A stretch of DNA of 40,345 bases, taken from contig CALMZX010000149.1 of NCBI GenBank assembly GCA_937870685.1, positions 1 through 40,345 on the forward strand. Direction: 5' to 3'. Positions 20,797 to 40,345 of the stretch are shown piece by piece. The translations under genes and the position numbers were made by a program. The notes beneath the pieces were generated by a model. It was given only the letters and a program-made list of their open reading frames with translations. It was not told the DNA's origin and did not search any database. Every line of letters begins with the position of its first letter. Positions within the stretch are counted from its first letter, which is position 1. This DNA is from an uncultured Alphaproteobacteria bacterium (GTDB lineage Bacteria > Pseudomonadota > Alphaproteobacteria > Rhizobiales > Aestuariivirgaceae).

Positions 20797-21099
20797 ATGG
20801 CCAATCTCATCATCACTTACTGGCGCGACATTCCCTCGGCGGTTTCCGTGAAAATCGGGCGCAAGGAAGAGAAGCGCATGCTCGACAACCGCTTCATGGA
20901 AGCAATCGACATGGCCGCCATGCGCGATGGGGCCACGGCGACGGACGACTACCTCGCCGACTGGCGGCGCGGTGAACCGATCGCCGTGTCCGATGATCTT
21001 GCCGCCGAAGCCGACAAGGCCAAGGCCGACCTCGAATCCACCTACACACCAGACCGCATCAAGCAACTCATCGGCAATGGAGGCCGGAACGCATCATGA
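20797..21099 (+). CDS. PF13769 ('virulence factor') small protein
   Basis: A 100-residue protein of the PF13769 family: MANLIITYWRDIPSAVSVKI, then GRKEEKRMLDNRFMEAIDMAAMR and DYLADWRRGEP. The family name comes from early plant-pathogen work; no biochemical role is established. Its stop codon overlaps the start of the methyl-THF:corrinoid methyltransferase (ATGA), tying it to C1/corrinoid metabolism. ATG 20797 is chosen because the conserved domain starts there; the ribosome binding site is weak. Confidence 0.88.
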   Translation: MANLIITYWRDIPSAVSVKIGRKEEKRMLDNRFMEAIDMAAMRDGATATDDYLADWRRGEPIAVSDDLAAEADKAKADLESTYTPDRIKQLIGNGGRNAS

Positions 21100-22052
21100 C
21101 CCATACTCTCGTCGCCTCGGCCACGCGCACCCACATCATCGGTTTCGACAAGCCCTTCACCATCATCGGCGAGCGCATCAACCCGACGGGCCGCAAGAAG
21201 CTTGCTGCCGAAATGCAGGCCGGCAATTTCGACACGGTGGTGGCTGACGCGCTGGCCCAGATGGCGGCGGGTGCCCATATCCTCGACATCAATGCCGGCG
21301 TCACGGCGGTGAACCCGAACGAGACCGAGCCGCCGCTGATGAAGCAGACACTCGAGATCGTCATGGGCGTGTGCGACCTGCCGCTGTGCATCGACTCGTC
21401 CGTCACTTCCGCCCTGAAGATGGGCCTCGAAACCGCCAAGGGTCGGCCTCTCGTAAACTCCGTCACCGGAGAAGAAGAGAAGCTCGAAGCCATCCTGCCG
21501 CTGGTCGCCAAGTACAACGTGCCGGTCGTCGCCATCTCCAACGACGAGACGGGCATTTCGGAAGACCCGGATGTGCGTTTCGAAGTCGCCAGGAAGATCG
21601 TGCAGCGCGCCGCCGATCACGGCATCAAGCCGGAAGATATCGTTGTCGATCCCCTCGTCATGCCGATCGGTGCCATGGGCACGGCGGGCCAGCAGGTGTT
21701 CCGCCTCGTGCGCCGCCTGCGCGAAGAGCTGAAGGTGAACACCACCTGCGGCGCCTCCAACATTTCCTTCGGCATGCCGAACCGCCGCGCGCTCACCGGC
21801 TACTTCCTCGCCATGGCGGCCTCACACGGCATGACCTCCGCCATCATGAACCCGATGCATGATGAAGACATGCACGCCATCTTCGGCGCCAATGTTCTCA
21901 ACGGCACGGATGCCCACTGCAAGTTCTGGAACAACAAGTTCCGCGACATGACGGCACCGCGCCCCGCCGCCGCGGCCCCCGGTGAAACGGCTCCCACAGC
22001 CGACGACATCGCCGCCCGCCGCGCCGCCCGCGAAGCCCGCCGCCGGAGGTGA
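21096..22052 (+). CDS. methyltetrahydrofolate:corrinoid methyltransferase (MtgA/MtqA-like)
   Basis: A 318-residue pterin-binding TIM-barrel enzyme that moves a methyl group between a corrinoid protein and tetrahydrofolate. Family blocks are FTIIGERINPTGRKKLAAEM, the GAHILDINAGVTAVNPNETE pterin-site segment, LPLCIDSSV, LVNSVTGEEEK and the GASNISFGMPNR block. In MttB-type systems it accepts the methyl group from the corrinoid protein and feeds methyl-THF to C1 metabolism. The C-terminus carries an unusual Ala/Pro linker ending in an Arg-rich tail (ARRAAREARRRR). A large inverted repeat separates it from the activator gene. Confidence 0.93.
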   Translation: MTHTLVASATRTHIIGFDKPFTIIGERINPTGRKKLAAEMQAGNFDTVVADALAQMAAGAHILDINAGVTAVNPNETEPPLMKQTLEIVMGVCDLPLCIDSSVTSALKMGLETAKGRPLVNSVTGEEEKLEAILPLVAKYNVPVVAISNDETGISEDPDVRFEVARKIVQRAADHGIKPEDIVVDPLVMPIGAMGTAGQQVFRLVRRLREELKVNTTCGASNISFGMPNRRALTGYFLAMAASHGMTSAIMNPMHDEDMHAIFGANVLNGTDAHCKFWNNKFRDMTAPRPAAAAPGETAPTADDIAARRAAREARRRR

Positions 22053-22063
22053 TATCTCTGTCG

Positions 22064-22199
22064 CCCTCCCCCCTGTGGGGAGGGTCGGGGTGGGGGTCGC
22101 TCCGGCATCTGCCCCGTCTCTTGCGCCGTATGCGGAAAGGCACGCAAGATGACCGAGAATCCCAGACCCCCACCCCTGCCCTCCCCACAAGGGGGAGGG
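22064..22199. repeat. long inverted repeat (35-bp arms) inside the corrinoid operon
   Basis: The arms at 22064-22098 and 22165-22199 are reverse complements with about three mismatches; both are very rich in G/C runs. The 66-nt centre contains a shorter cttgcg / cgcaag stem. It fills the whole gap between the methyltransferase and activator genes, so the mRNA should fold into a long hairpin. G-rich elements of related appearance occur at 24720-25410. Confidence 0.85.
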
Positions 22200-22210
22200 G
22201 GAGACATTGA

Positions 22211-24250
22211 ATGACCGAACAGAACCCCCTCATCGTTTTCACTCCCTCCGGCAAGCGCGGGCGTTTTGCCAGGGGCACGCCGGTGTTGCAGGCGGCGCGG
22301 GCGCTGGGCGTTGACATCGACTCCGTCTGCGGCGGGCGCGCCATTTGCGGCCGCTGCCAGATCACCGTCGGCGAAGGCGAGTTCGCCAAGCACGGCATTT
22401 CCTCGGCCACAACCCACGTGAGTGGCGTCACGCAGGTCGAGCAGCGCTACGACAAGCTGCGTGGCCTCGCCGCCGGTCGCCGCCTCTCCTGCCAGACGCA
22501 GATCCTCGGCGATCTCGTCATTGACGTGCCGCCGGAATCCCAGGTGCACAAGCAGGTGGTGCGCAAGGAAGCAGACACCCGCGTCATCGAACTCGATCCC
22601 GCCACGCATCTCTACTACATCGAGGTGGAAGAGCCGGACATGCACAAGCCCTCCTCCGACCTCGAGCGTGTCTACATGGCGCTCAAGGACCAGTGGGGCG
22701 TGGAGAATGTCACCTGCGACCTCTCCATCATCGCCGACCTGCAGAAGACCCTGCGCAAGGGCGAGTGGAAGATCACCTGCGCGGTCTACTCACGCGCCCC
22801 CGGTGGCGGCAACCGCCTCGCCGCCATCTGGCCGGGCTTCCATGACTCGCTTTTCGGGCTGGCGATTGACGTGGGTTCCACCACCATCGCGGCCCATCTC
22901 ACCAATCTCTCCACCGGTGAAGTGGTGTCGTCGGCGGGGCTGATGAACCCGCAGATCCGCTTCGGCGAAGACCTGATGAGCCGCGTCTCCTACGTGATGA
23001 TGAATCCGGGTGGCGAAAAGGAAATGACCACGGCCATCCGCACGGCGCTGCAACAGCTGGCGGAGGAAGTGGCCACCCGCGCAAACCGTCCGCTCACGGA
23101 CATTCTGGAAGTGGTGCTTGTGGGCAATCCGGTCATGCATCACCTCTTCCTCGGCGTGGACCCCACGGAACTGGGTGGTGCGCCCTTCGCGCTGGCCACC
23201 GGCCTTCCCCTCACCTTCCCGGCCCGCGAGATGGAGTTCAAGCTCAATCCCGGCGCCTGGGCCTATGTGCTGCCCTGCATCGCAGGCCATGTGGGTGCGG
23301 ATGCGGCGGGTGTGGTGCTGTCGGAAGCACCGCACACGCAGGATGAATACATGCTCTGCGTTGACGTGGGCACCAATGCCGAAATCGTGCTGGGTTCAAA
23401 GGCGCGGCTGCTCGCCTGTTCCTCGCCCACCGGGCCCGCCTTCGAGGGCGCGCAGATTTCATCGGGCCAGCGCGCCGCCCCCGGCGCCATCGAGCGCATC
23501 CGCATCAATCCGGAAACGCTGGAGCCGCGCTTCAAGGTGATCGGCTCCGATCTCTGGTCGGATGAGCCGGGCTTCGAAGAGGCCATTGCCTCCACCGGAG
23601 TCACGGGCATCTGCGGCTCGGGCATCATCGAGGCGATTGCCGAGATGTATCTCGCAGGGATCATCAGCCAGGATGGTCTGATCGACGGCGCGCTTGCGGC
23701 GCAGTCCCCGCGCATCGAGCCCTACAAGCGCACCTTCAATTATGTGATCCGCACGCCGCGCGAAGACGGCAACGAGCCCCTGATCCGCATCACCCAGAAC
23801 GACGTGCGCGCCATCCAGATGGCGAAAGCGGCGCTCTACGCGGGTGTGCGCCTGCTCATGGACAAACTCAACATCGACCATGTGGACAAGATCAGGCTGG
23901 CGGGTGCCTTCGGCTCCCACATCGACATGAAATACGCCATGGTGCTGGGCCTCATCCCGGATTGCGATCTGGCGCGCGTGCAGTCAGCGGGCAACGCGGC
24001 GGGCACGGGGGCGCGCATCGCCCTTCTCAACAAGAAGGGCCGCGACGAAATCGAGAACGTGGTGCGCCGCATCGAAAAAATCGAAACCGCCGTCGAACCC
24101 AAGTTCCAGCAACACTTCGTGGAAGCCATGGCGCTCCCCCACAAGACAGCAGACTTCGTGAACCTGAAAAAGGTGGTCACCCTGCCGCCGCTGAAGACGG
24201 TGGTGGTCAGTGATGAGGATGGCGGGGGAAGGCGGAGACGGAGGGGGTGA
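22211..24250 (+). CDS. ASKHA/RamA-type corrinoid-activating protein
   Basis: A 679-residue reductive activator that restores Co(I) in corrinoid methyltransferase systems using ATP. The N-terminal 2Fe-2S domain has C40-x5-C46-x2-C49 and a distant C94 (SVCGGRAICGRCQ...LSCQTQ), the plant-type ferredoxin pattern. A middle domain is followed by the DUF4445/ASKHA ATPase part from about residue 215 (LAIDVGSTTIAAHL, MLCVDVGTNAEIVLG, GICGSGIIEAIAEM, and AGAFGSHIDMKYAM). It resembles the RamQ/ASKHA group. The C-terminus ends in an Arg-rich tail (GGGRRRRRG). Confidence 0.95.
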   Translation: MTEQNPLIVFTPSGKRGRFARGTPVLQAARALGVDIDSVCGGRAICGRCQITVGEGEFAKHGISSATTHVSGVTQVEQRYDKLRGLAAGRRLSCQTQILGDLVIDVPPESQVHKQVVRKEADTRVIELDPATHLYYIEVEEPDMHKPSSDLERVYMALKDQWGVENVTCDLSIIADLQKTLRKGEWKITCAVYSRAPGGGNRLAAIWPGFHDSLFGLAIDVGSTTIAAHLTNLSTGEVVSSAGLMNPQIRFGEDLMSRVSYVMMNPGGEKEMTTAIRTALQQLAEEVATRANRPLTDILEVVLVGNPVMHHLFLGVDPTELGGAPFALATGLPLTFPAREMEFKLNPGAWAYVLPCIAGHVGADAAGVVLSEAPHTQDEYMLCVDVGTNAEIVLGSKARLLACSSPTGPAFEGAQISSGQRAAPGAIERIRINPETLEPRFKVIGSDLWSDEPGFEEAIASTGVTGICGSGIIEAIAEMYLAGIISQDGLIDGALAAQSPRIEPYKRTFNYVIRTPREDGNEPLIRITQNDVRAIQMAKAALYAGVRLLMDKLNIDHVDKIRLAGAFGSHIDMKYAMVLGLIPDCDLARVQSAGNAAGTGARIALLNKKGRDEIENVVRRIEKIETAVEPKFQQHFVEAMALPHKTADFVNLKKVVTLPPLKTVVVSDEDGGGRRRRRG

Positions 24251-24663
24251 TGCCCGAACCGTGGCTCCAACTCCTGAGTTTTCCAGTGGCTTTGTTGGCG
24301 GGGTTGGTTGTCAAGGTTATCTACTATTCGATTCCGGCAGTCTCAAGGTGTTGGCAACGATGGTTGTTTGCCAGTGATCCCACACAACCCGAACCAGACT
24401 TTGCACTGGCGGTGTTGCTAAGTCTCCCTTTCAGTGGAGCGGCGGCAATTCTGGTCAACTTTGGCATTGATCAATCTCTGTACCTTCTTCCTTTTGTCGT
24501 TGTTTTGATCAAAGTCCTCCCCCAATACGGAGAGGGTTATCGCCAGTACTTGGCGCGGATGAAGCATTGGAAACTCGAACTTCTCTCCGGTACCGGAGTT
24601 GCAGTTCCCATGGTTGCTGCATTCTATGCTGCGCATACCGTCATCTTTACGAAACTCCATTGA
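24250..24663 (+). CDS. small membrane protein of unknown function
   Basis: A 137-residue protein with about four hydrophobic segments (LLSFPVALLAGLVVKVIYY, FALAVLLSLPFSGAAAILV, LYLLPFVVVLIKVL, GVAVPMVAAFYAAHTVIF). Its start overlaps the activator stop codon by one base, so it could be translated with it. Its base composition is visibly lower in GC than the upstream operon, so it may be a later arrival. No family was recognised. Confidence 0.6.
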   Translation: MPEPWLQLLSFPVALLAGLVVKVIYYSIPAVSRCWQRWLFASDPTQPEPDFALAVLLSLPFSGAAAILVNFGIDQSLYLLPFVVVLIKVLPQYGEGYRQYLARMKHWKLELLSGTGVAVPMVAAFYAAHTVIFTKLH

Positions 24664-29036: not shown

Positions 29037-30140
29037 ATGACACTGCTTGCCCCCGTCCACGCCATTCTCGCCCGCACCGGTCTTGACGCCATCGCGCTCG
29101 TTCCCGGGGCCAATTTCCTGCGCATCTTCGGCAAGGATTTCCACCAGATGGAACGTCCGCTGGTGATCGTCGTGCCGCGCACAGGTTCGCCGGTGGCGAT
29201 CGTGCCCAACCTCGAAATGGGTTCTTTCGCGCCGCTGGGTTTTCCGGGCGAAGTGTTTGACTGGCGCGATGAGGAAGGTTTCATGGGCGCCTTCATGAAA
29301 GCCGGTGCGGCGCTGCCGCAACTTGGCAAGGGCGCGCGCATCGGCGTGGAAGGCCAGCGCATGCGGGTGTTTGACTTCCAGGCCCTGCAGAAGGCCCTGC
29401 CCCACGCCGCATTCGAGGACGCCCACGCGGAGATTTCCACCGTCCGCCTGCACAAGACGCCAGCCGAGATCGAGGCGCTGCGCGAAGCCATCCGGCGGTC
29501 CGAAGTTGCGCTCGAAGCCACACTGCAACAGGTCAAGGTGGGCATGACGGAAAAGCAGGTGGAGGCGATCCTGCTGGGTGAACTGTTCAGGGCGGGATGC
29601 GACGGGCTCTCATTCGATCCGATTGTCGCGGCCGGAGACAATGCGGCTAAGCCCCATGCATCGGCGCGCGCCGACTATGTGATCAAGGCAGGTGATGCCC
29701 TTCTCTTTGACTTCGGCGGACGCTACCGGCATTTCAACGCCGACATCACGCGCACGTTTTTCGTCGGCCATGTGAGTGACCATGACCGCGCCTTCTATGA
29801 AACGGTGCTCGCCGCCAATGCCAAGGGCCGGGAAATTTCCCGTCCCGGCATGACCGCCTCCGAGGTGGATGACGCGGTGTGCAAGGTGCTGGAGAATTCC
29901 CAGTTCGCTGCCTTCAAGCGCCACAAGACCGGACACGGCCTCGGGCTTGATGTGCATGAAGCACCGCAGATCATGCGCGGCAACATGGCGAAGCTCGAAC
30001 CCGGCATGATCTTCACCATCGAACCCGGCCTCTACCGCGACGGCGAAGCAGGCGTGCGCATCGAGGATGATGTTGTGGTGACGGAAACCGGAATCGAAAG
30101 CCTCACCACCTTCCCGCGTGACTTGCGGGTGATCGGCTAA
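29037..30140 (+). CDS. M24-family (Xaa-Pro) metallopeptidase
   Basis: A 367-residue 'pita-bread' enzyme with a creatinase-type N-terminal domain (about 1-130) and the catalytic domain (about 140-365). All five metal ligands are present: D215 (FDFGGRY), D226 (FNADITRTFF), H290 (TGHGLGLDVHE), E319 (FTIEPGLY) and E333 (VRIEDDVVV). The family includes Xaa-Pro aminopeptidases and related small-molecule hydrolases, so a dipeptide or C-N hydrolase role near the methyltransferase genes is possible but unproven. It converges with psuG with a 4-bp overlap. Confidence 0.92.
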   Translation: MTLLAPVHAILARTGLDAIALVPGANFLRIFGKDFHQMERPLVIVVPRTGSPVAIVPNLEMGSFAPLGFPGEVFDWRDEEGFMGAFMKAGAALPQLGKGARIGVEGQRMRVFDFQALQKALPHAAFEDAHAEISTVRLHKTPAEIEALREAIRRSEVALEATLQQVKVGMTEKQVEAILLGELFRAGCDGLSFDPIVAAGDNAAKPHASARADYVIKAGDALLFDFGGRYRHFNADITRTFFVGHVSDHDRAFYETVLAANAKGREISRPGMTASEVDDAVCKVLENSQFAAFKRHKTGHGLGLDVHEAPQIMRGNMAKLEPGMIFTIEPGLYRDGEAGVRIEDDVVVTETGIESLTTFPRDLRVIG

Positions 30141-31045
30141 CCCTTGGCGTAAGCCACGGCGATCTCCGTTGCCACGCGGGCGTTGTTCATGACGAGCGCG
30201 ATATTGGCCGTGAGCGAGCGGCCCGCGGTGATTTCGGTGATGCGCTTCAGCAGGAATGGCGTGACGTTCTTCCCGGCAATGCCCTGGTCTTTCGCCTCGG
30301 CGAGGGCGCGCGTGATGTGCGGCGTGATTTCGGCTGACGGGATCTCGTCTGCACCCGGAATGGGATTGGCAACGACAATGCCGCCCTTCAATCCCAAGTT
30401 CCACTTGGCCTTCATCATCGCCGCCACCTCAGCCGCCGTGTCAAGGCGCATGGGCACGGGGATGCCGCTGGCGCGCGAGTAAAAGGCGGGAAATTCGTCC
30501 GTCGCGAATCCCACCACCGGCACGCCGTTGGTTTCGAGAATTTCAAGGGTCAGCGGCAAATCCAGGATGGCCTTGGCACCTGCCGTCACCACCGCCACAT
30601 TGCTGATGGCAAACTCATGCAGGTCATTCGAAATGTCGAAGGTCGTATCGGCCTCGCGGTGGGCCCCGCCGATGCCGCCTGTCGCGAACACGGCAATGCC
30701 CGCCATGGCCGCAAGTCGCATGGTGGAGGCGACCGTCGTCGCGCCCGTCACCTTGCGGGCCACGATGTAGGGGATGTCGCGCGTCGAAACCTTCGGAATG
30801 GTGGTACCGGTTTTCGCGAAGTGCTCCAACTCCCCGTCAGCCAGTCCGGCGCGCAGCACGCCATCGATGATTGCGATGGTGGCGGGAATGGCGCCGTTTT
30901 TCCGCACCACGTCCTCAACCTCGCGGGCCATATCCAGATTCTGCGGGTATGGCATGCCATGGGCGATGATGGTGGACTCGAGTGCCACCACAGGCGCGCC
31001 TCTGACCACGGCGCGGCGCACATCCTCAGCGAGTTGCACTTTCAT
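30137..31045 (-). CDS. psuG: pseudouridine-5'-phosphate glycosidase
   Basis: A 302-residue enzyme that splits pseudouridine 5'-phosphate into uracil and ribose 5-phosphate. The family signature VALESTIIAHGMPYPQNL, the GAIPATIAIIDG block, KVSTRDIPYIVARKVTGATTVASTM (catalytic lysine region), FATGGIGGAHREA and NPIPGADEIPS are all present. It is the last gene of the lysR-mttB-kinase-psuG operon, 3 bp after the kinase. Confidence 0.95.
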   Translation of the reverse strand: MKVQLAEDVRRAVVRGAPVVALESTIIAHGMPYPQNLDMAREVEDVVRKNGAIPATIAIIDGVLRAGLADGELEHFAKTGTTIPKVSTRDIPYIVARKVTGATTVASTMRLAAMAGIAVFATGGIGGAHREADTTFDISNDLHEFAISNVAVVTAGAKAILDLPLTLEILETNGVPVVGFATDEFPAFYSRASGIPVPMRLDTAAEVAAMMKAKWNLGLKGGIVVANPIPGADEIPSAEITPHITRALAEAKDQGIAGKNVTPFLLKRITEITAGRSLTANIALVMNNARVATEIAVAYAKG

Positions 31046-31048
31046 GTT

Positions 31049-31912
31049 CTACTCCAAAGTGGATGCGGCACCGGCAATGACCTGCCCCGCCAGACGTTGC
31101 CCGCGGGCTGCCGCGATGGCCAACGGCTCGCCCTGCAAAAGCCCATGGACCAGACCCGCCACGGCGGCGTCGCCAGCTCCAGTCACATCGGCGATCTGTG
31201 CCGGCGGCTGGGCTTCGACATGGTCGATGTCGGTTCCATCGGAGACAAACGCGCCTTCCGGTCCGGCGTGGATCACCACGTTCCGCAGGCCCTTGCCGTG
31301 CATGTAGGCAAAGGCGGCTTCGATGTCCCGCGTGCCTGCAAGGCTGTCGATCTGGTCGAAGTTCGGCGAAGCGAGGAAGAGCGGCGCCACCTTCAGGGCC
31401 TCGATCAGCTTCCTCGATTTCGGAACGGAGACGGGCTCGACGACGAGCTTTGCGCCAGCCAGTTCCGCCACGAAATTCAGTGTCTCCTGCGGCAGGTTGC
31501 AATCCGCGACCACGAGGCGCGCCTTGTCGAGCATGGCGGCATGGGCCTCCACCAGCTGTGGCGTCAGTTCCTCCATGCAGCGCATGTCGTTCAGCGCCGT
31601 CACCAGTTCCCCGTCATGGTCGAGATAGGCGACATAGGAGCCGGTGCTGATGCTTGTGCGCAGGATGCGCGACACGTCCACGCCCGCCTTGCGGGTCTGG
31701 TCCAGCACCGCATCGCCGTGCACGTCGCGGCCGACAATGGAAATGAGTGCGACGTCGGCTCCGAGGCGCGCGAGGTTGTGGGCGATGTTGCGCCCCACCC
31801 CGCCTGCCGTCATGCTTACCACACCGGGATTGGATGTTCCCAGCCGGTTGGGTTCGTTGACCTTGGCCTTGATGTCGATGTTGGCGCCGCCAATGACGAC
31901 GATGTCGGGCAT
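31049..31912 (-). CDS. psuK: PfkB-family kinase, probable pseudouridine kinase
   Basis: A 287-residue ribokinase-fold sugar/nucleoside kinase. The N-terminal VVIGGANIDIKAKV and TSNPGVVSMTAGGVGRNIAHNLARLGADV and the C-terminal DVTGAGDAAVAGLVHGL (anion hole and catalytic aspartate) are typical of PsuK-type PfkB kinases. It should phosphorylate pseudouridine, the substrate for PsuG directly downstream. It starts 2 bp after the MttB-type gene, so these genes are clearly co-transcribed. Confidence 0.92.
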   Translation of the reverse strand: MPDIVVIGGANIDIKAKVNEPNRLGTSNPGVVSMTAGGVGRNIAHNLARLGADVALISIVGRDVHGDAVLDQTRKAGVDVSRILRTSISTGSYVAYLDHDGELVTALNDMRCMEELTPQLVEAHAAMLDKARLVVADCNLPQETLNFVAELAGAKLVVEPVSVPKSRKLIEALKVAPLFLASPNFDQIDSLAGTRDIEAAFAYMHGKGLRNVVIHAGPEGAFVSDGTDIDHVEAQPPAQIADVTGAGDAAVAGLVHGLLQGEPLAIAAARGQRLAGQVIAGAASTLE

Positions 31913-31914: not shown

Positions 31915-33468
31915 TCAGAAGTCCGTCTTGACGCCGCCCTCCCTGACACGGCGGTCGACGAACGCGTCGAGTTCGGCGCGGACGGCGGCGGGCATTTCAG
32001 GCTGCACGTAGTTTTCCAGTGCCTGCTTATAGACCTGATTCGCCTTCTTGTAGGCATCGGGGCTGCCGGCGGCGGTCCACTGCTGATAGTTGCGCCAGTC
32101 CGAGATGATCGGCTGGTAGAAGGCATCGGCATAGCGTGCCAGCGTGTGCTGGGCGCCGAAGAAGTGGCCGCCGGGGCCAACTTCGCGGATCGCGTCCAGC
32201 GCCAGCGAGTCCGGGCTGGTGTCCAGCGGCTTGAGGAAGGTCTTCACCATCTGGATCAGGTCGCAGTCGAGCACGAACTTCTCGAAGGAGGCGACGAGGC
32301 CGCCCTCCATCCAGCCCGCGCCGTGCATGATGTAGTTGCCACCGCCCATGGTGACACCCCAGAGCGAGAACACGCTTTCGTAGGCCGCCTGCGCGTCCAC
32401 CGTGTTGGCGGCGCAGGTGTTGGAGGTACGGTAGGGCACGCCATAGCGCCGCGCCATTTGCCCGCCGAGCAGGGTGGATTTCATGTATTCCGGTGTGCCG
32501 AAAGCCGGTGCGCCGGATTTCATGTCCACGTTGGAGGTGAACCCGCCATAGATCACGGGCGCGCCCTTCTTCACCAGTTGGCAGAAAGCGAGGCCTGCCA
32601 GAGCTTCGGCATTTTGAAGTGCCACGGCACCGGCGATGGTGACGGGGGCCATGGCACCCGCCAGCGTGAAAGGCGTGACGCAGACGATCTGGCCGCGCGA
32701 TGACAGCTCCATCATGCCCGTCAGCATGTTGCCATCCAGCTTGAGGGGCGAGTTGGTGTTGACGATGGTCATCAGGCAGGGGCGCCTGGTGAACTCCTCT
32801 TCGCTGACATTGTTGGCAATGCGGGCGATCTCGATGGCGTCGAGAACGTTCTGGCGGCCAAGCGAATAGCATTTCAGCGGCTTGTCGAGGAGAAGGCACT
32901 TGTCGCGCAGGGCCTCCAGATGACGGATCGACGGATGCAGGTCGATCGGTTCCACGCTGTAGCCGCTGCAGGCGTCGAGGCAGTCAAAATACTGCGAGAG
33001 CTTGAGGAACTTCTGGAAATCGGCGCGGGTGCCGGGGCGGCGGCCACCGTCCATGTCGTGGCAATTGGGCGGGCTGCCCACGGCGCAGAACGCCATGTAG
33101 TCGCCACCAAGCGGGAAGCTGCGCGCGGGATTGCGGGCATGGAAGGTGAATTGCGCCGGGGCGTGGCTCACCATGTCCTCGATGAAGGCGGGATCGAAGC
33201 GCACGCGCTCGCCGTCTATCTTCACGCCGCCTGATGCCTTCAGCAGGTCACGCGCTTCGGGCAGAAGGAAATCCATGCCGATTTCGCTGAGGATCTGGAG
33301 CGACGCGCGGTGAATGGATTCCACCTGGTCATCGGACACGATCTTCGTCGGCGGGAACGGCCGCTTGGCCACACCCGGCGGAATTTGCGGAATGGTGCTT
33401 CCGGCGGGAGCGCGGCGCGTGGTGTCGCGGCGGGTACGGCGGGTGCTTTCGGGGGCGATCTCGGTCAT
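31915..33468 (-). CDS. MttB-superfamily (non-pyrrolysine) corrinoid methyltransferase 1
   Basis: A 517-residue member of the trimethylamine methyltransferase superfamily (COG5598). Family blocks are SIHRASLQILSEIGMDFLLPEARDLL, FHARNPARSFPLGG, LKCYSLGR, LMTIVNTNSPLKLDGNMLTG, MAPVTIAGAVALQNAEALAG and GPGGHFFGAQHTLARYADAFYQP. The frame has no in-frame amber codon, so it belongs to the branch without pyrrolysine that includes the glycine-betaine (MtgB) and proline-betaine (MtpB) demethylases. ATG 33468 overlaps the lysR stop codon (ATGA); the open frame upstream runs over lysR and is not coding. The first 25 residues are Arg-rich. Confidence 0.94.
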   Translation of the reverse strand: MTEIAPESTRRTRRDTTRRAPAGSTIPQIPPGVAKRPFPPTKIVSDDQVESIHRASLQILSEIGMDFLLPEARDLLKASGGVKIDGERVRFDPAFIEDMVSHAPAQFTFHARNPARSFPLGGDYMAFCAVGSPPNCHDMDGGRRPGTRADFQKFLKLSQYFDCLDACSGYSVEPIDLHPSIRHLEALRDKCLLLDKPLKCYSLGRQNVLDAIEIARIANNVSEEEFTRRPCLMTIVNTNSPLKLDGNMLTGMMELSSRGQIVCVTPFTLAGAMAPVTIAGAVALQNAEALAGLAFCQLVKKGAPVIYGGFTSNVDMKSGAPAFGTPEYMKSTLLGGQMARRYGVPYRTSNTCAANTVDAQAAYESVFSLWGVTMGGGNYIMHGAGWMEGGLVASFEKFVLDCDLIQMVKTFLKPLDTSPDSLALDAIREVGPGGHFFGAQHTLARYADAFYQPIISDWRNYQQWTAAGSPDAYKKANQVYKQALENYVQPEMPAAVRAELDAFVDRRVREGGVKTDF

Positions 33469-34397
33469 GCTGCTTTGCCTGCATCCTTGATGGGTTCGAG
33501 GGCGGGATCGGCAGCGACCTGCTTTACCAGCCAGTCCTCGAAGCGTTTGATCTTGGGCTTGTTGCGGTGCTCGCTGTGGCAGGCGAAGTACCACTGGTTC
33601 CTGTTGGGCGCGCGCATGGGGAATGGCTGCACCAGCCGGCCCAGCTTGATTTCTTCCGATGCGAAAGGCCCGATGGTCATGGCCACACCACGGCCTTCGA
33701 TGGCCGCTTCCTGGGCGAGGATGTAGCTGTCCACCGAGAGGCGGTTGGAAGGTTTCACGCCCTTCACGCCCGCCGCGTCGAGCCAGAGCTGCCAGTCCTC
33801 CTCTGCCGTATAGACGTCGATCAGCTTGTGCTTCTTCAGGTCTTCCGGCTTCTTCAGCGGATTGTCGCCTTTCAGGAGTTGTGGCGCACATACCGGCACG
33901 AGATAGGACTTGAAGAGCGGGCGGTAGTAGTGGCCCGGTGCCTTGTTGCGGGCCAGGATGATGCCGAGGTCCACGTTGCGGTCATCAAAGTCCCAGTCGA
34001 AGTAGGAGGTGGAGAGCCTGACCTTCATGTCCGGAAAGCGGCGCTCGAAATCATGCAGGCGGGGAATGAGCCACTTGAGGGCCACCGTCACATAGACCTG
34101 CACCGTCAGCTCATTGTCGGTGACAGACGGGCGCGCGGCGCGGGTCTGCGCCTCGATCTGGTCGAAAGCATCGCGGATCGCGGGAAAATAGGCCTGGCCG
34201 CTCTGGGTCAGTTCGGCCCTGCGGGCATCGCGGCGGAACAGCTGGGTGCCAAGCCGGTCTTCCAGCAGCTTCACCTGGTGGCTGACGGCACTGCGGGTTA
34301 TGCCCAGCTCATTGGCGGCCATGCGGAACGAACCGAGCCGGGCAGCGGCCTCGAAGGCGGTCAGGGCGCGGAGCGGTGGAAGGTCACGTCTGGGCAA
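33465..34397 (-). CDS. LysR-family transcriptional regulator (GcvA-like)
   Basis: A 310-residue LysR regulator. The winged HTH is at residues 6-65 (LRALTAFEAAARLGSFRMAANELGITRSAVSHQVKLLEDRLGTQLFRRDAR), and the effector-binding domain spans about residues 95-295. The start codon is TTG at 34397; an in-frame stop lies just upstream, and the next ATG would cut the HTH. It overlaps the MttB gene downstream by 4 bp and is divergent from the second MttB gene, so it is a good candidate to control both operons. Confidence 0.93.
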   Translation of the reverse strand: MPRRDLPPLRALTAFEAAARLGSFRMAANELGITRSAVSHQVKLLEDRLGTQLFRRDARRAELTQSGQAYFPAIRDAFDQIEAQTRAARPSVTDNELTVQVYVTVALKWLIPRLHDFERRFPDMKVRLSTSYFDWDFDDRNVDLGIILARNKAPGHYYRPLFKSYLVPVCAPQLLKGDNPLKKPEDLKKHKLIDVYTAEEDWQLWLDAAGVKGVKPSNRLSVDSYILAQEAAIEGRGVAMTIGPFASEEIKLGRLVQPFPMRAPNRNQWYFACHSEHRNKPKIKRFEDWLVKQVAADPALEPIKDAGKAA

Positions 34398-34578: not shown

Positions 34579-36159
34579 ATGAGCACTGCCGAAGACCTTT
34601 CCCGCCGCCGTGGCGGCCGCGACGCCCGCCGGGCGCTGCGTTCCCGCGCCATTCCCATGGATGAAGCTGCTGTCCGCCCCGGCATGACGGGAGGCCAGTA
34701 CAAGCCACTGAAGGATTCAGACCTGCCGCGCATTCATGCGGCGGCCCTCAAGCTGCTGGAGACAGTGGGGCTGGGCAGCGCCATTCCCTCCTGCGTCGAG
34801 GCGATGTCGGCGCACGGCTGCTGGGTCAATGACAAGGGCCGCCTGTGCATTCCGCGCGGCCTCGTCGAGGACACCATCGCCAAGGCGGCGCGCAATTTCA
34901 TCCTGCCCGCGCGCAACCCGCAGCACGATATGGAACCGTCGGGCAAGCGCGTCTATTTCGGCACGGCGGGTGCCGCTGTCCATATCGTCGAACCCTCGAC
35001 CAAGGAATACCGCGAGTCGCTTCTGGTCGATCTCTACGATGCCGCCCGCATTGTTGACACCTGCGAGCACATCCACTTCTTCCAGCGCCCGCTGACGGCG
35101 CGCGACATGATCACGGGGCACGACCTCGACATCAACACCATGTACGCCTGTCTCGCGGGCACACAGAAGCATGTGGGCACCTCCATGGTTGAACCCGCCC
35201 ATGTGGAGGAATGCCTGCAGATCCTGCACGTGATCGCGGGCGGTGAGGACAAGTGGCGGGCGCGGCCCTTCGTGTCGCAGTCCAACTGCTTCGTGGTGCC
35301 GCCCCTCAAGTTCGCCGAAGATGCCTGCCGCTGCCTTGAGGCCGCGGCGCGCGGCGGCATGCCGGTGCTGCTGCTCTCGGCGGCGCAGGCTGGTGCCACA
35401 TCCCCGGCGGCGCTCGCCGGAACAGTGGTGCAGGCGGTGGCGGAATGCCTCGCAGGCCTTGTCTACATCAACTGCATCGTGCCCGGCGCGCTGGCGATCT
35501 GGGGGCCCTGGCCCTTCGTGTCCGATCTCCGCACCGGGGCCATGTCTGGCGGTTCGGGCGAGCAGGCGCTGATCACGTCCGGTTGCGCACAGATGGGCCA
35601 CTACTACGATCTCACCGTCGGCTCCGCCGCAGGCATGTGCGACTCCAAGATGCCGGACATGCAGGCAGGCTATGAAAAGGGCGTGACCGCCGGCATCTCA
35701 GCCATGACCGGCATCAACATGCTCTATGAATCGGCTGGCATGCATGCCTCGCTGCTCGGCTTCTGCCTTGAGAGCCTGCTCATCGACAACGACATGCTGG
35801 GCTCGATCAACCGCAATGTGCGGGGCATCGAGGTGACGGAGGATTCACTTTCCATCGACGTCATCACCGACACCTGCATCAATGGTCCGGGGCACTATCT
35901 CGGCAGCGAGCAGACACTGAACCTGATGCAGAAGGACTACGTGTATCCCGCCATCGGCAACCGCATGAGCCCGAAGGAATGGGTAGAGGCGGGCAAGCCG
36001 GACATCGTGGAGCGGGCGGCGGCACGCAAGCGGGAAATCCTGTCGGGCTACTATCCCGACTACATCCCGCGCGCGATTGATGATCTCATCCGCGCCAAAC
36101 ATGACATCAAGCTGCCACGGCAGGTGATGGAACCGGGCGATCCGCGCTGGGCGCGCTGA
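34579..36159 (+). CDS. MttB-superfamily (non-pyrrolysine) corrinoid methyltransferase 2
   Basis: A 526-residue paralogue of the 31915-33468 gene, clearly different in sequence. Family blocks are RIHAAALKLLETVGLGSAIPSC, RNPQHDMEPSGKRVYFG, HIHFFQRPLTARDM, QKHVGTSMVEPAHVEEC, QAGATSPAALAGTVVQAVAE, SKMPDMQAGYEKGVTAGI and NGPGHYLGSEQTLNLMQKDY. There is no in-frame amber codon. It should transfer a methyl group from a quaternary amine to the corrinoid protein. The N-terminus is strongly Arg-rich (LSRRRGGRDARRALRSRA). It leads a four-gene operon. Confidence 0.94.
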   Translation: MSTAEDLSRRRGGRDARRALRSRAIPMDEAAVRPGMTGGQYKPLKDSDLPRIHAAALKLLETVGLGSAIPSCVEAMSAHGCWVNDKGRLCIPRGLVEDTIAKAARNFILPARNPQHDMEPSGKRVYFGTAGAAVHIVEPSTKEYRESLLVDLYDAARIVDTCEHIHFFQRPLTARDMITGHDLDINTMYACLAGTQKHVGTSMVEPAHVEECLQILHVIAGGEDKWRARPFVSQSNCFVVPPLKFAEDACRCLEAAARGGMPVLLLSAAQAGATSPAALAGTVVQAVAECLAGLVYINCIVPGALAIWGPWPFVSDLRTGAMSGGSGEQALITSGCAQMGHYYDLTVGSAAGMCDSKMPDMQAGYEKGVTAGISAMTGINMLYESAGMHASLLGFCLESLLIDNDMLGSINRNVRGIEVTEDSLSIDVITDTCINGPGHYLGSEQTLNLMQKDYVYPAIGNRMSPKEWVEAGKPDIVERAAARKREILSGYYPDYIPRAIDDLIRAKHDIKLPRQVMEPGDPRWAR

Positions 36160-36160
36160 G

Positions 36161-36823
36161 ATGGAACACCCGGTACTGGGCCGCATCCGGCGCGAGGGCT
36201 TCGCGGCCCTCGGCTGGTTTGCGCCTTCGCCGGAGGACCGCGCGCCCGCCGGTGCCGTCTTCATGGTGTTGATCGGCAACGCAGGGCCGGAGATGTTCCG
36301 GCGCTTTGCCCGCGAACGAGACCCGGCCCGGGACAGGATGGATGACTGGACACGCCAAACGGTGGACCGGATGGCCACCGATCTTGATGCCCGCGCCGTC
36401 TATCCGTTTGACACACCTCCCCTGCCCTTCCTCACCTGGGCGCGGAAGGCGGGCGCGGGCCATGTCTCTCCGCTCGGCCTCAACATCCATCCCGTCCATG
36501 GCCTGTGGCATGCCTACCGTGCCGCGCTGCTGTTTCCGGTGGCGTTTGACTTTCCGCGCCACGCCGCAGGGCCGCATCCGTGCGAAAGCTGCGTCGGCAA
36601 ACCCTGCCTTGCGGCCTGTCCGGTTTCCGCCTTTGACGGGACTTCCTATGATGTTGCCGCTTGCGGACAACATGTGCTCTCGCCCAAGGGTGAAACCTGC
36701 ATGACGGGCGGGTGTCTCGCCCGGCTTGCCTGCCCGGTGGGCAGGCGTTACGTCTATGAACCGGCACAACTGCACTTCCACATGAGGGCCTTTGCCGAAG
36801 CCCGCAGGAAAGAGCGACCATGA
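36161..36823 (+). CDS. Fe-S protein with CblC/QueG-like corrinoid-binding motif
   Basis: A 220-residue cytoplasmic protein. The first ~135 residues include a PLGLNIHPVHGLWHAYRAALLFP segment (about 104-126), which resembles the 'IHP..G.....R..LL' motif of MMACHC (CblC), QueG and reductive dehalogenases, where it forms part of the base-off cobalamin pocket. The C-terminal part has eight cysteines in ferredoxin-like groups: C141-x2-C144-x4-C149-x3-C153-P, then C168, C180, C185 and C191-P, enough for two 4Fe-4S clusters. It starts 1 bp after the MttB gene and overlaps the next gene by 4 bp. I infer a corrinoid reductase or electron-donor role; it could also be a plain ferredoxin. Confidence 0.8.
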   Translation: MEHPVLGRIRREGFAALGWFAPSPEDRAPAGAVFMVLIGNAGPEMFRRFARERDPARDRMDDWTRQTVDRMATDLDARAVYPFDTPPLPFLTWARKAGAGHVSPLGLNIHPVHGLWHAYRAALLFPVAFDFPRHAAGPHPCESCVGKPCLAACPVSAFDGTSYDVAACGQHVLSPKGETCMTGGCLARLACPVGRRYVYEPAQLHFHMRAFAEARRKERP

Positions 36824-37734
36824 GTTACGAACCCATCCGCCGGAAACTTGCGGGAGGTGAGGTCATCATCCTCGACGGCGGAACGGGAACGGACATCCAG
36901 CGCCGGGGCGCCCCGATGAGCGGCGACACCTGGTGCGCCGATGCCAACCTCACCCACCCGCAGATCGTACGCGAGGTCCACAGGGACTATGTGGCGTGTG
37001 GCGCCGACATCATCACCGCCAACACCTACGCCAGCAGTCCCCTGCTCTTCAGCCATATCGGGCGCGCGGCGGATGTGAACCGCATCGACACCATCGCCGT
37101 CCAGCTGGCGCAGGAGGCTGCTGCCGGGACAGATGTTTGCGTGGCGGGCTCCATGTCCACCATGCGGCCCATGCAAACGGGTTCCGACCGCAACAATCTG
37201 GCCCATGAGTGGCCGGAAGAAGAGGCGCGTCGCCTGTTCCGCATGAAGGCCAATGGGCTGAAAGCCGCGGGCGCTGACCTGATCATGATGGAGATGATGC
37301 GCGACACTGACTACGCCGTTTGGGCCAGCGAGGCCGCGTTGGAAACCGGGCTGCCTGTATGGATCGGCATGTCAGCCGAACGGGCCGAAGGCGGGGGATT
37401 GCAGGGCTGGGGCCGCGCCGATTGCCGGTTTGAAGACATTGTGACACGTCTGGCTGCCCTGAAGCCGGACGTGATGTGCATCATGCATACGTCGCCCAAC
37501 GACACGGGCGAAGCGATCGGCATCCTGCGCAAGCACTGGAGCGGCCCCATCGCCACATATCCAGAATGCGGTTACTTCAAGTCACCGGACTGGGAGTTTG
37601 TTGACGTGATCGCGCCTGCCGATCTCGTGGCGGCGTCTCGTGACTGGCAGCGCAAGGGTGCCAGCATCTTCGGCGGCTGCTGCGGCATCGGGCCGGAGCA
37701 CATTGCCACACTCAACAGGGAATTGCGGACATGA
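36820..37734 (+). CDS. homocysteine S-methyltransferase/BHMT-like enzyme
   Basis: A 304-residue TIM-barrel protein of the Zn-dependent homocysteine methyltransferase family: VIILDGGTGTDIQRRGAP, GADIITANTYASSP, VCVAGSMSTMRP, EMMRDTDYAVWA and the zinc motif SIFGGCCGIGPEHI (C287, C288). The third zinc ligand, normally the Cys of an 'N-C-T-x-P' turn, is replaced: the sequence reads DVMCIMHTSPNDT, with His223 in that place and Cys220 three residues earlier. It could use betaine or another methyl donor, or act within the corrinoid system. ATGA overlaps link it to both neighbours. Confidence 0.88.
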   Translation: MSYEPIRRKLAGGEVIILDGGTGTDIQRRGAPMSGDTWCADANLTHPQIVREVHRDYVACGADIITANTYASSPLLFSHIGRAADVNRIDTIAVQLAQEAAAGTDVCVAGSMSTMRPMQTGSDRNNLAHEWPEEEARRLFRMKANGLKAAGADLIMMEMMRDTDYAVWASEAALETGLPVWIGMSAERAEGGGLQGWGRADCRFEDIVTRLAALKPDVMCIMHTSPNDTGEAIGILRKHWSGPIATYPECGYFKSPDWEFVDVIAPADLVAASRDWQRKGASIFGGCCGIGPEHIATLNRELRT

Positions 37735-38114
37735 CACAGGGTTCCTGTCTTTGCGGCGGCGTTGCCTTCACCATCACCGGTCCGCTGCGCCCGGTTGTCG
37801 CCTGTCACTGCACGCAGTGCCGCAAGCAATCGGGCCACTACGGCGCTTTCACCGCCTGTGCCGATGCCGACCTGCATTTCACGGCACAGGATACACTGGC
37901 CTGGTACAGCGCCAGTGCTTCGGCAAAGCGCGGCTTCTGCAAGACCTGTGGTTCCCTGCTGTTCTGGAAAGGTGATGGCCGCGACTACACCTCCATTGCC
38001 GCCGGATCGCTGGACGGCAAGACCGGCCTGACACTGGAAGGTCACATCTTCTGCGCCGACAAGGGCGACTATTATGAGATCTGTGATGGCACCTACCAGA
38101 AACAGACCTGGTGA
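37731..38114 (+). CDS. GFA-family (glutathione-dependent formaldehyde-activating-like) protein
   Basis: A 127-residue zinc protein with the seven GFA cysteines: C6-x-C8, C25-x-C27-x2-C30 and C70-x2-C73. Some members of this family bind glutathione-formaldehyde adducts, although many are of unknown role. As the last gene of the MttB2 operon (ATGA overlap with the methyltransferase before it), it may deal with C1 by-products. Confidence 0.93.
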   Translation: MTQGSCLCGGVAFTITGPLRPVVACHCTQCRKQSGHYGAFTACADADLHFTAQDTLAWYSASASAKRGFCKTCGSLLFWKGDGRDYTSIAAGSLDGKTGLTLEGHIFCADKGDYYEICDGTYQKQTW

Positions 38115-39167: not shown

Positions 39168-39215
39168 TGGTTTGACTGCGGGGCGCGGCGCAAGCTGCCC
39201 CCGCAGCCCTATCAC

Positions 39216-39621: not shown

Positions 39622-39669
39622 TGGTTTGACTGCGGGGCGCGGCGCAAGCTGCCCCCGCAGCCCTATCAC

Positions 39670-39700
39670 AAAAGGCGTCCCCTCGCGGGGGCGCCTTTTT
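39670..39700 (+). terminator. terminator of pilin copy 2
   Basis: Same stem-loop as at 39216-39246, in the second duplicated unit, followed by a T run. Confidence 0.92.
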
Positions 39701-39904
39701 GCTCTGCCTGGAGCGTCCCCGCGCAGCTTAACGTGGCATTCACCACACTCCCGATCCTGTACGGAATTTCATGAACTTCCATCAATGTTCACAATCGGAT
39801 TCAGGTCTCATTAAAGAGTGCGGCATAATTTGACACCCTGTCAGCGAAACATTGGCTAGGCAGTCTTTCGCGGGTTGAAATCGGGCAGGCAATTGGAGCG
39901 TTCA

Positions 39905-40060
39905 ATGCGGAAATTTTTGAAGGAAGAGTCGGGCGCGACGGCCATTGAATATGGCATGATTGCCGCAGCCACCGGCATGGCCCTCATGGGCGTCATGCCG
40001 TCCATCGGCGAAGCGCTGCAACCGATCTTTACCAGTCTCGCAGCCGGCTTCGGCAGCTGA
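39905..40060 (+). CDS. Flp/Fap-type pilin, divergent third copy
   Basis: A 51-residue prepilin, MRKFLKEESGATAIEYGMIA, with the same cleavage site and E15/Y16, but a Met-richer helix (ATGMALMGVM) and a different C-terminus (GEALQPIFTSLAAGFGS). It shares the start of the duplicated upstream sequence only as far as about 39820. It has a GGAG ribosome binding site and its own terminator. Confidence 0.95.
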   Translation: MRKFLKEESGATAIEYGMIAAATGMALMGVMPSIGEALQPIFTSLAAGFGS

Positions 40061-40092
40061 TCACGGCATTCACGGGGCCCTGCCCCAAACGC

Positions 40093-40122
40093 AAAAAGCG
40101 CCGCGACAAGCGGCGCTTTTTT
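40093..40122 (+). terminator. terminator after the third pilin (probably bidirectional)
   Basis: A 12-bp perfect stem aaaaagcgccgc / gcggcgcttttt with a 5-nt loop and T/A runs on both sides; it could also end transcription of the convergent corrinoid protein gene. Confidence 0.92.
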
Positions 40123-40144
40123 CATGGGAGTGAGTTGCGGCTGA

Positions 40145-40345
40145 TCAGGCCATCTGGTTGTGCTTGCGGGCCATGAAGCTCTTGGCGGTTTCGACGGCCA
40201 CCGCAGCATCGCGGCAATAGGCGTCGGCACCAATGGCCTTGGCAAAGTCTTCGTTCAGGGGAGCACCGCCCACGAGCACGGTGTAATCGTCGCGGATGCC
40301 CTTTTCCTTCATGGTGTCGATGACGACCTTCATGTAGGGCATGGT
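40145..40345 (-). CDS. corrinoid (B12-binding) protein, C-terminal part (MtbC/MtgC-like)
   Basis: The last 66 residues of a B12-binding domain protein; the gene runs off the right edge. The TMPYMKVVIDTMKEKGIRDDY segment and the VLVGGAPLNEDFAKAIGADAYCRDAAVAVE block are the C-terminal half of the cobalamin-binding domain in MtbC/MtaC-type methyl carriers. It would carry the methyl group between the MttB-type enzymes and the methyl-THF methyltransferase. The cobalt-ligating D-x-H-x-x-G motif should lie just outside the window. Confidence 0.94.
   Translation of the reverse strand, partial: TMPYMKVVIDTMKEKGIRDDYTVLVGGAPLNEDFAKAIGADAYCRDAAVAVETAKSFMARKHNQMA

What the first reader, a model, noticed from the sequence alone, without database searches (positions are those of the whole stretch)
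20797..40345. Nearly complete non-pyrrolysine corrinoid methyl-transfer system spread over three loci
Seen: two MttB-superfamily methyltransferases, a methyl-THF:corrinoid methyltransferase, an ASKHA/RamA-type activator, a B12-binding corrinoid protein, DUF1638, PF13769, a homocysteine-methyltransferase-like enzyme and a GFA protein within 20 kb. Established knowledge: in anaerobes, MtgB (glycine betaine) and MtpB (proline betaine) use this set of parts, with RamQ-type activators. Inference: this alphaproteobacterium, presumably aerobic or facultative, demethylates a quaternary amine and sends methyl groups to THF. The parts are in separate operons, which may mean one corrinoid core serves several substrate modules.
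Basis: partly seen in the sequence, partly recalled or inferred. Interest (0 to 1): 0.72.

Follow-up and report, generated by a model that had tools for sequence, protein, structure and literature searches.

The report
Aerobic vitamin B12 betaine-demethylation gene island
These genes form a vitamin B12-based machine, recently described in other aerobic bacteria, that probably strips methyl groups from glycine betaine and also makes methionine; here it comes with an unnamed small iron-sulfur protein that looks like a new kind of B12-handling protein.

Summary
The core is the aerobic split methionine synthase/glycine-betaine demethylase MtgBCDE with RamA and DUF1638, published in 2018 and 2025, so it is not new. 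MttB1 is most likely MtgB: it is sister to a clade of rhizobial MttBs beside dimethylglycine-dehydrogenase-type genes, shares 182 of 183 conserved columns with them, and 46 of 48 genomes with it have that gene.

The parts
20773..21099 (+). PF13769 (Virulence_fact) small protein, first gene of the MtgD-RACo unit
   Evidence: Pfam 71 bits vs cut-off 25
21096..22052 (+). MtgD-type methyl-THF:corrinoid methyltransferase
   Evidence: Pfam Pterin_bind 107.1 bits; NCBIfam NF005719 369.5 vs 259
22211..24250 (+). RACo/RamA-like ASKHA corrinoid activator with a 2Fe-2S domain
   Evidence: Pfam RACo_C_ter, Raco_middle, RACo_linker, Fer2
24247..24663 (+). small ORF overlapping the end of the activator gene, no family above cut-off
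30137..31045 (-). PsuG, pseudouridine-5'-phosphate glycosidase
   Evidence: Pfam Indigoidine_A 424.1 bits; PDB 4gij E 1e-99, with the Lys in AGAK that the 4gim chain lacks
31049..31912 (-). PsuK, pseudouridine kinase (PfkB family)
   Evidence: Pfam PfkB; PDB 7vkp pseudouridine kinase E 7e-46; below the NCBIfam PsuK cut-off (172.2 vs 540)
31915..33468 (-). MttB1, non-pyrrolysine MttB-superfamily protein, probably MtgB (glycine betaine:corrinoid methyltransferase)
   Evidence: Pfam MTTB 643.9 bits; PDB 4yyc (function untested) 353 bits and 9yce glycine betaine methyltransferase 323 bits; tree; 182 of 183 conserved columns shared with MttBs beside DMGDH-type genes
33465..34397 (-). LysR regulator, GcvA subfamily, ATGA overlap with MttB1
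   Evidence: NCBIfam GcvA 310.5 vs 288; sequence read
34579..36159 (+). MttB2, distinct non-pyrrolysine MttB-superfamily protein; Met codon ATG 35635 aligned to the pyrrolysine UAG
   Evidence: Pfam MTTB 350.2 bits; PDB 7xcl alignment; Rfam PYLIS_3 59.7 bits
36161..36823 (+). Fd, QueG/MMACHC-like protein with eight invariant Cys, candidate minimal class III B12/2[4Fe-4S] protein
   Evidence: alignment A1; AF2 pLDDT 87.9; Foldseek QueG, MMACHC, RdhA; weak profile hits
36820..37734 (+). SMT, S-methyl_trans protein, a subfamily distinct from MtgE/Bmt
   Evidence: Pfam 169 bits; 83.6 vs cut-off 338 for the betaine-homocysteine family; 25-26% identical to three MtgE sequences, GGCC kept
37731..38114 (+). 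GFA-domain protein
   Evidence: Pfam GFA 73.6 bits
38115..38831 (-). DUF1638 protein, the published partner of the RamA-like activator
   Evidence: Pfam 92.1 bits; PMC5764234 passages
40145..40345 (-). C-terminal 66 residues of MtgC; N-terminal part on contig C48 of the same genome

Best explanation
The window holds most of an aerobic, cobalamin-dependent split methionine synthase / glycine betaine demethylase (MtgBCDE type) in an Aestuariivirgaceae-like alphaproteobacterium. Model: MttB1 (MtgB) moves a methyl group from glycine betaine to cob(I)alamin on MtgC; MtgD (21096) passes it to tetrahydrofolate; an unlinked dimethylglycine-dehydrogenase-type enzyme takes the product on; in reverse, methyl-THF charges MtgC and MtgE on contig C48 makes methionine. 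The RACo/RamA protein with DUF1638 restores cob(I)alamin after oxidation. A second, divergent operon adds MttB2 for another, unknown methylated amine, an SMT that may hand methyl groups to a thiol, and Fd, proposed here as a small QueG/MMACHC-like corrinoid-binding iron-sulfur protein that reduces or processes the cofactor. PsuK-PsuG is a pseudouridine-salvage pair captured in the MttB1 operon. Shown here: gene content, synteny, tree, profiles, predicted fold. Inferred from published homologs: every reaction. Inferred only by resemblance: the roles of Fd, SMT and MttB2.
For: Family matches. MtgC completed by C48, with MtgE 2.6 kb away (NF005718 508.1 vs 338). No MetH seen: only two S-methyl_trans genes found in the genome, MtgE and SMT. 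One MtgC match at 88-100% identity in each of 4 relatives, the 100% one probably the query's own genome. The MttB1 clade (40 rows, support 91) is sister to 76 rows (98) that include the DMGDH-linked rhizobial MttBs, and one genome nested in the MttB1 clade (L069 = L208) has its MttB1 beside a DMGDH-type gene. Of 183 columns conserved in both groups 182 are identical. MttB1 and a DMGDH-type gene of at least 59% identity: both 46, MttB1 only 2, DMGDH only 4, neither 17 of 69 genomes; leaving out genus g2, p = 1.3e-4, against p = 0.71 for MttB1 and PsuG. The marker protein has the DAO-FAO_M-GCV_T architecture. Published genetics and proteomics for the same set: PMC12478193, PMC5764234.
Against: No activity or expression data. 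MttB1's best PDB match is 4yyc, whose function is untested (353 bits), ahead of MtgB (323 bits), and of the 182 shared conserved columns 110 are identical in 4yyc and 102 in MtgB 2QNE, so sequence alone does not single out MtgB. In this window MttB1 is linked to PsuK-PsuG, not to DMGDH; the DMGDH-type gene is elsewhere and split over two contigs (C59, C146). 'DMGDH' is an architecture, not a tested substrate: it passes no NCBIfam cut-off among the models listed. Only 29 of 46 loci with less similar MttB1 have that gene within 3.5 kb downstream. The RACo match to AcsV is below that model's cut-off (403.7 vs 800). The genome is 92% complete in 155 contigs, so absence of MetH is not proved. I had no sequence of R. 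pomeroyi MtgB for the tree.
Confidence: 0.68

Rival explanations
1. MttB1 demethylates another quaternary amine (for example proline betaine, carnitine, gamma-butyrobetaine or choline) rather than glycine betaine; the rest of the model stands.
For: MttB-superfamily substrates change between paralogs in one organism (Mausz discussion). MttB1 scores higher against 4yyc, of untested function, than against MtgB, and shares slightly more conserved columns with it (110 vs 102 of 182).
Against: Sister clade beside DMGDH-type genes, 182 of 183 shared conserved columns and co-occurrence with that gene. 4yyc groups with the C22-type paralogs, outside the MttB1 clade. The downstream paralog MttB1', not MttB1, carries changes at conserved sites (E173D, P174A).
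Confidence: 0.2
2. MttB1 and PsuK-PsuG form one pathway: the corrinoid enzyme removes methyl groups from N-methylated pseudouridines released from RNA, PsuK and PsuG then split the nucleoside.
For: LysR-MttB1-PsuK-PsuG overlap or nearly abut; 33 of 45 PsuG matches (33 of 43 genomes) in the family lie within 3.5 kb of an MttB1-like gene, all 33 on the same strand; PsuK and PsuG match the solved pseudouridine enzymes.
Against: MttB1 presence is not associated with PsuG once genus g2 is left out (p = 0.71). In G179, without an MttB1 match in the genome, PsuK-PsuG stays in the island, and MttB1, LysR, MttB2 and SMT are missing from the stretch read. G173 (the same genome as L064) has MttB1 and MttB1' adjacent without it. 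182 of 183 columns as in the DMGDH-linked clade. No paper in the listings describes such a link.
Confidence: 0.03
3. Fd is an ordinary 2[4Fe-4S] electron carrier, for example the donor to the RACo protein, and binds no corrinoid.
For: Eight Cys and weak NapG/ferredoxin matches in 29 of 30 members; a carrier is chemically needed for reductive activation; the fold matches have high rmsd (5 to 8 A for QueG and MMACHC).
Against: The 130-residue part before the cysteines is conserved and is part of a model whose best matches are QueG and then MMACHC; MMACHC family match in 26 of 30 members, though weak (best E 0.0017).
Confidence: 0.35
4. Fd is a QueG-like reductase with another job and is in the island by chance.
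For: Class-wide only 17 of 80 Fd loci have a core methyl-transfer gene within 8 kb, and 32 of 59 Fd genomes lack MttB2.
Against: 33 of 33 Fd hits in 87 loci of this order lie within 400 bp of an island gene (loci chosen mostly for MttB1 or PsuG, some genomes twice); Fd and MttB2 co-occur 27 / 2 / 32 / 228 in 289 genomes.
Confidence: 0.15

Closest known systems
Ruegeria pomeroyi MtgBCDE dual methionine synthase / glycine betaine methyltransferase (PMC12478193)
   Same: MtgB, MtgC, MtgD, MtgE, RamA-like and DUF1638 proteins, aerobic alphaproteobacterium, several MTTB paralogs on one MtgC
   Different: Here most parts are gathered in one region; PsuK-PsuG lies in the MtgB operon; extra MttB2-Fd-SMT-GFA operon; no metF or betaine transporter family among the window ORFs scanned (not every ORF was scanned)
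Phaeobacter inhibens three-part methionine synthase with RamA-like and DUF1638 reactivation proteins (PMC5764234)
   Same: same three modules and the same two reactivation proteins
   Different: No Fd-like protein in the passages I saw; the window adds substrate modules
Desulfitobacterium hafniense MtgB (PDB 2QNE, 9YCE; organism recalled)
   Same: MttB1 residues 39-512 align with it (323 bits), no pyrrolysine
   Different: anaerobe (PMC12478193); MttB1 belongs to a separate proteobacterial clade, 102 of the 182 shared conserved columns are identical in 2QNE
Epoxyqueuosine reductase QueG and reductive dehalogenases (class III B12/[4Fe-4S] enzymes)
   Same: predicted fold (QueG E 2.8e-4, prob 1.00, TM 0.55 by query) and two cysteine sets
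   Different: 220 residues against about 370 to 380 in the QueG chains listed, first cysteine set spaced Cx2Cx4Cx3CP
MMACHC (CblC) B12-processing protein
   Same: fold match E 0.011 prob 1.00 and weak sequence matches
   Different: MMACHC lacks the ferredoxin part (PMC4646009 passage)

Membership tests
MtgBCDE split methionine synthase / betaine demethylase | separate cobalamin-binding protein (cap plus PF02310) with D-x-H-x-x-G | tested here: met
   B12-binding_2 55.6 vs 23 and B12-binding 74.7 vs 32.1 on C48, DIHDIGKN at residue 113, C-terminus in the window
MtgBCDE split methionine synthase / betaine demethylase | separate pterin-binding methyltransferase (MtgD) | tested here: met
   NF005719 369.5 vs 259
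MtgBCDE split methionine synthase / betaine demethylase | separate homocysteine module (MtgE) in place of MetH | tested here: met
   C48 gene NF005718 508.1 vs 338; only two S-methyl_trans genes found, genome 92% complete
MtgBCDE split methionine synthase / betaine demethylase | RamA-like plus DUF1638 reactivation pair | tested here: met
MtgBCDE split methionine synthase / betaine demethylase | growth on glycine betaine and methionine prototrophy depend on mtgC | not testable with these tools
   needs mutants
MtgB (glycine betaine methyltransferase) | grouping with a tested MtgB | tested here: inconclusive
   sister to the DMGDH-linked clade with 182 of 183 columns shared, but the only tested enzyme in the tree, 2QNE, lies outside, and 4yyc is slightly nearer
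MtgB (glycine betaine methyltransferase) | activity with glycine betaine | not testable with these tools
   needs enzyme assay
Pyrrolysine MttB (trimethylamine methyltransferase), for MttB2 | in-frame UAG read as pyrrolysine | tested here: not met
   ATG at 35635 is aligned to the UAG; TIGR02369 366 vs 525
MtgE/Bmt, for the window SMT | score above the betaine-homocysteine family cut-off | tested here: not met
   83.6 vs 338
Class III B12/[4Fe-4S] enzymes (QueG, RdhA), for Fd | two [4Fe-4S] cysteine sets | tested here: met
   C141, C144, C149, C153, C168, C180, C185, C191 invariant in 30 of 30; cluster type inferred
Class III B12/[4Fe-4S] enzymes (QueG, RdhA), for Fd | nitroreductase-like cobalamin-binding fold | tested here: inconclusive
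   predicted fold matches QueG and MMACHC with TM 0.55 and 0.46 by query length and rmsd 5 to 8 A; sequence evidence weak
Class III B12/[4Fe-4S] enzymes (QueG, RdhA), for Fd | bound base-off cobalamin | not testable with these tools
   needs purified protein

The most novel reading that the evidence does not exclude
The 220-residue protein at 36161-36823 belongs to a so far unnamed minimal class III B12/[4Fe-4S] family (a QueG/MMACHC-like corrinoid-binding region plus two iron-sulfur clusters, without the extra C-terminal domain of QueG), and its job is to reduce or process the corrinoid that MtgC carries, so aerobic split methionine synthases would have a second reactivation or cofactor-loading route besides RamA and DUF1638.
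Probability: 0.35. Interest if true: 0.75.

Novelty: new variant of a known kind. Interest (0 to 1): 0.5.

Why it matters
The core shows the B12-dependent betaine/methionine system, described in roseobacters and some Hyphomicrobiales, in the little-studied Aestuariivirgaceae, with one corrinoid hub for several methyltransferases. The unnamed Fd protein is a concrete, small candidate for a further class III B12/[4Fe-4S] family; the QueG structure paper (PMC4646009, passage seen) says that other uncharacterized families of this class may exist but lack a recognisable cobalamin motif. How oxygen-exposed cells keep corrinoid in the Co(I) state is a question that a knock-out of this gene would address directly. 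The MttB2 family gives a defined target for finding another methylated amine used in aerobic habitats.

Tried and rejected
Methyl-pseudouridine demethylation by MttB1 with PsuK-PsuG: suggested by the operon, but rejected after the profile test, the genomes G179 and G173 (= L064), and the conserved-column test. A pyrrolysine reading of MttB2: one search listed stops inside several matches; in the 30 loci fetched the tblastn alignments, which are shorter at the ends, show one stop only, at query position 512, near the end, and in the 29 loci where the site could be read (L241 is a fragment) the residue at the pyrrolysine site is Met or Ile; PYLIS_3 is then read as coding similarity. The window SMT as MtgE: rejected. 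DUF1638 structure: model pLDDT 80, but no PDB match below E 0.001 and TM by query length at most 0.30 in the 50 rows shown, so nothing learned. Fd as an obligate island gene: not so, class-wide only 17 of 80 loci have a core gene within 8 kb (80 of 83 matches fetched, the window's own and two fragments left out); neighbours elsewhere are varied. First tree had four rows taken from a wrong frame (L085, L030, L032, L095); they were re-extracted and the tree redone. Of the 263 rows extracted, 141 entered the tree, with two PDB sequences: rows found with two wrongly chosen queries (the longest frames of L002 and L003, not their MttB genes), some further C22-type rows and all but six MttB2 rows were left out. 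Some genomes are in both collections under two ids (for example L064/L210, L063/L211, L069/L208), so locus counts hold duplicates. Literature: judged from the listings and abstract beginnings, none of 1 paper and 7 papers joins pseudouridine genes with MttB; none of those listed (15 of 31; 3 of 3; 6 of 6) announces an Fd-like protein. These searches cover open-licence papers only.
Full report
What is there. On the plus strand 20773-24663 lie PF13769, an MtgD-type methyl-THF:corrinoid methyltransferase, a RACo/RamA-like activator and a small unknown ORF. On the minus strand LysR (33465-34397) overlaps MttB1 by ATGA; PsuK and PsuG follow after gaps of 2 and 3 bases (coordinates). Divergently, MttB2, Fd, SMT and GFA follow each other with a 1-base gap and two 4-base overlaps. 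DUF1638 and the C-terminus of a corrinoid protein lie on the minus strand at the right edge. The window is 40345 bases of contig C149 of a 3.29 Mb, 155-contig, 92%-complete assembly. The named relatives closest in MttB1 are Hyphomicrobiales MAGs, Aestuariivirga and Taklimakanibacter (taxonomy), so the genome is most likely Aestuariivirgaceae; no tool named it.

Beyond the edge. A full-length ortholog (L041) found the missing part: G000:C48:52222-52770, 96% identical over residues 1-183, running into the contig end. The last 55 bases of C48 equal the first 55 of the reverse-complemented window, so the two contigs are very probably neighbours. DIHDIGKN is at residue 113. C48 also carries a Bmt/MtgE gene 2.6 kb away, 59% identical to a Mesorhizobium one and above the cut-off of the betaine-homocysteine family. 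Only MtgE and SMT were found with S-methyl_trans in the genome, and the five B12-binding matches (frames of 226 to 745 aa) include none long enough for a complete MetH; at 92% completeness this is suggestive. Four relatives have exactly one MtgC match each, 88-100% identical (the 100% one is probably the genome of the query). This genome has five MTTB genes and one further, 43% identical corrinoid protein on C110.

What it works like. The parts list equals the published three-part methionine synthase with RamA-like and DUF1638 proteins (PMC5764234, passages) and the dual methionine synthase/glycine betaine methyltransferase of Ruegeria pomeroyi (PMC12478193, sections 3, 4 and 9), whose authors also note up to seven MTTB genes per genome and colocalized genes in S. 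meliloti. A 2025 paper reports that the P. inhibens Bmt can use betaine and DMSP directly in vitro (PMC12366255, passages), so MtgE may have a second activity.

MttB1. In the tree of 143 rows (quick method, SH-aLRT, some genomes twice) the 40-row clade with MttB1 (91) is sister to 76 rows (98) that contain the rhizobial MttBs beside a DAO-FAO_M-GCV_T oxidoreductase, the architecture of dimethylglycine dehydrogenase (the substrate is inferred). One genome nested within the MttB1 clade (L069 = L208) has such a gene beside MttB1. Of 183 columns conserved at 95% in the MttB1 clade and the 43 DMGDH-linked rows, 182 carry the same residue; the downstream paralog MttB1' differs at five of these, among them E173D and P174A. 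Against: MttB1 scores higher with PDB 4yyc (function untested) than with MtgB, and 110 of the 182 columns are identical in 4yyc, 102 in 2QNE. Across the 69 genomes of the family MttB1 and the oxidoreductase (59% identity or more, read from a list that was cut at its weak end) occur as 46 both, 2 MttB1 only, 4 oxidoreductase only, 17 neither; outside genus g2 p = 1.3e-4. MttB1 and PsuG give 36/12/7/14, and outside g2 p = 0.71 (related genomes are not independent). In genome contigs, of the 63 of 80 loci with at least 3 kb downstream, the 17 with MttB1 at 65% or more have PsuG in 13 and DMGDH in 0 within 3.5 kb downstream; the 46 below 65% have PsuG in 0 and DMGDH in 29.

PsuK-PsuG. Both match solved pseudouridine enzymes. 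In the family 43 of 69 genomes have PsuG; 33 of 45 matches lie within 3.5 kb of an MttB1-like gene, all 33 on the same strand; one more (G153) was missed there because its MttB genes are frame-broken. Of 51 PsuG matches in 150 genomes of the order, 30 loci were fetched: 4 of the genus, next to MttB1, and 26 from elsewhere, of which none has MttB within 1.5 kb and 23 have PsuK. In G179 the stretch read keeps PsuG-PsuK, Fd, GFA, DUF1638, MtgC, MtgD and RACo but not MttB1, LysR, MttB2 or SMT. G173 (= L064) has MttB1 and MttB1' side by side without PsuK-PsuG. I read this as capture of a salvage pair by the operon. Why it is kept so well is unexplained.

MttB2, SMT, GFA. MttB2 scores alike against Pyl-MttB (199 bits) and MtgB (194) and forms its own deep branch. 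ATG 35635 stands where mttB has UAG; Rfam's PYLIS_3 matches from that codon on. MttB2 homologs occur in 29 of 289 class genomes; of the 29 loci other than the window's, 18 have a DMGDH-like flavoprotein and 6 a divergent LysR within the short flanks, so a quaternary amine is the best guess. SMT keeps the GGCC pair, but the third cysteine of MtgE (GANC) falls in an (I/V)MH stretch (the zinc roles are recalled).

Fd. Thirty orthologs share eight invariant cysteines, a Cx2Cx4Cx3CP set and a second set, and an invariant SPLG...GLxHA pattern. The AF2 model (pLDDT 87.9, pTM 0.85) matches QueG best (5d0a, E 2.8e-4, prob 1.00, TM 0.55 by query, rmsd 7.9 A), then human MMACHC (9mrs, E 0.011, prob 1.00) and reductive dehalogenases (E 0.046 and up). 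By sequence the profile gives QueG E 0.013, MMACHC-like 5ujc 0.11, MMACHC 3sby 0.8; members match QueG in 27 of 30, NapG in 29 of 30 and the MMACHC family in 26 of 30, all weak; the window's own protein does not match MMACHC at E 1. Each of these is weak alone; together they point to one superfamily. Fd is in 82 of 385 class genomes. With MttB2, over the 289 genomes, taken by their handles to be contained: 27 both, 2 MttB2 only, 32 Fd only, 228 neither. Against a strict link: of 80 Fd loci outside this genome only 17 have a core gene within 8 kb. In 87 loci of this order, chosen mostly for MttB1 or PsuG, all 33 Fd hits are within 400 bp of an island gene. So a role with corrinoid or C1 metabolism is likely, a role on MtgC is a proposal.

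Verdict. A real, conserved and mostly known system with features I did not find described, of which Fd deserves an experiment. Novelty: new variant of a known kind; interest 0.5.

Noticed in passing
window 38832-39833: 454-bp tandem repeat units, with small Flp-type pilin genes (name recalled); the first two (38991-39167, 39445-39621) are identical at protein level and a third, diverged one is at 39875-40060.
   Followed up: partly
window 35635-35734: Rfam PYLIS_3 (pyrrolysine insertion sequence mttB) matches inside MttB2 above its gathering score although the aligned amber codon is ATG; also in L041, L202 and L210.
   Followed up: partly
G000:C48 (L197:9912-12121): Between MtgE and MtgC lie two minus-strand genes, a class V aminotransferase and a Gfo/Idh/MocA oxidoreductase; their clusters recur beside MtgC in other loci.
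   Followed up: no
L198 (G179:C40): A 2.6 Mb relative lacks MttB1, LysR, MttB2 and SMT in the island but keeps PsuK-PsuG, Fd, GFA and the MtgC/MtgD core: a natural deletion useful for separating roles.
   Followed up: partly
L043:13298, L050:8628, L210:7622 and others: A paralog MttB1' follows PsuG (or MttB1 directly) in several relatives, forms its own clade (13 rows, support 98, one genome twice) and changes E173 and P174; its substrate may differ.
   Followed up: partly
L340, L341 (G329, G433): Outside the order, Fd lies divergently beside a 76-78% identical MtgC with DUF1638; in 6 class loci a formate-THF-ligase-like gene (name from resemblance) lies near Fd on the same strand.
   Followed up: no
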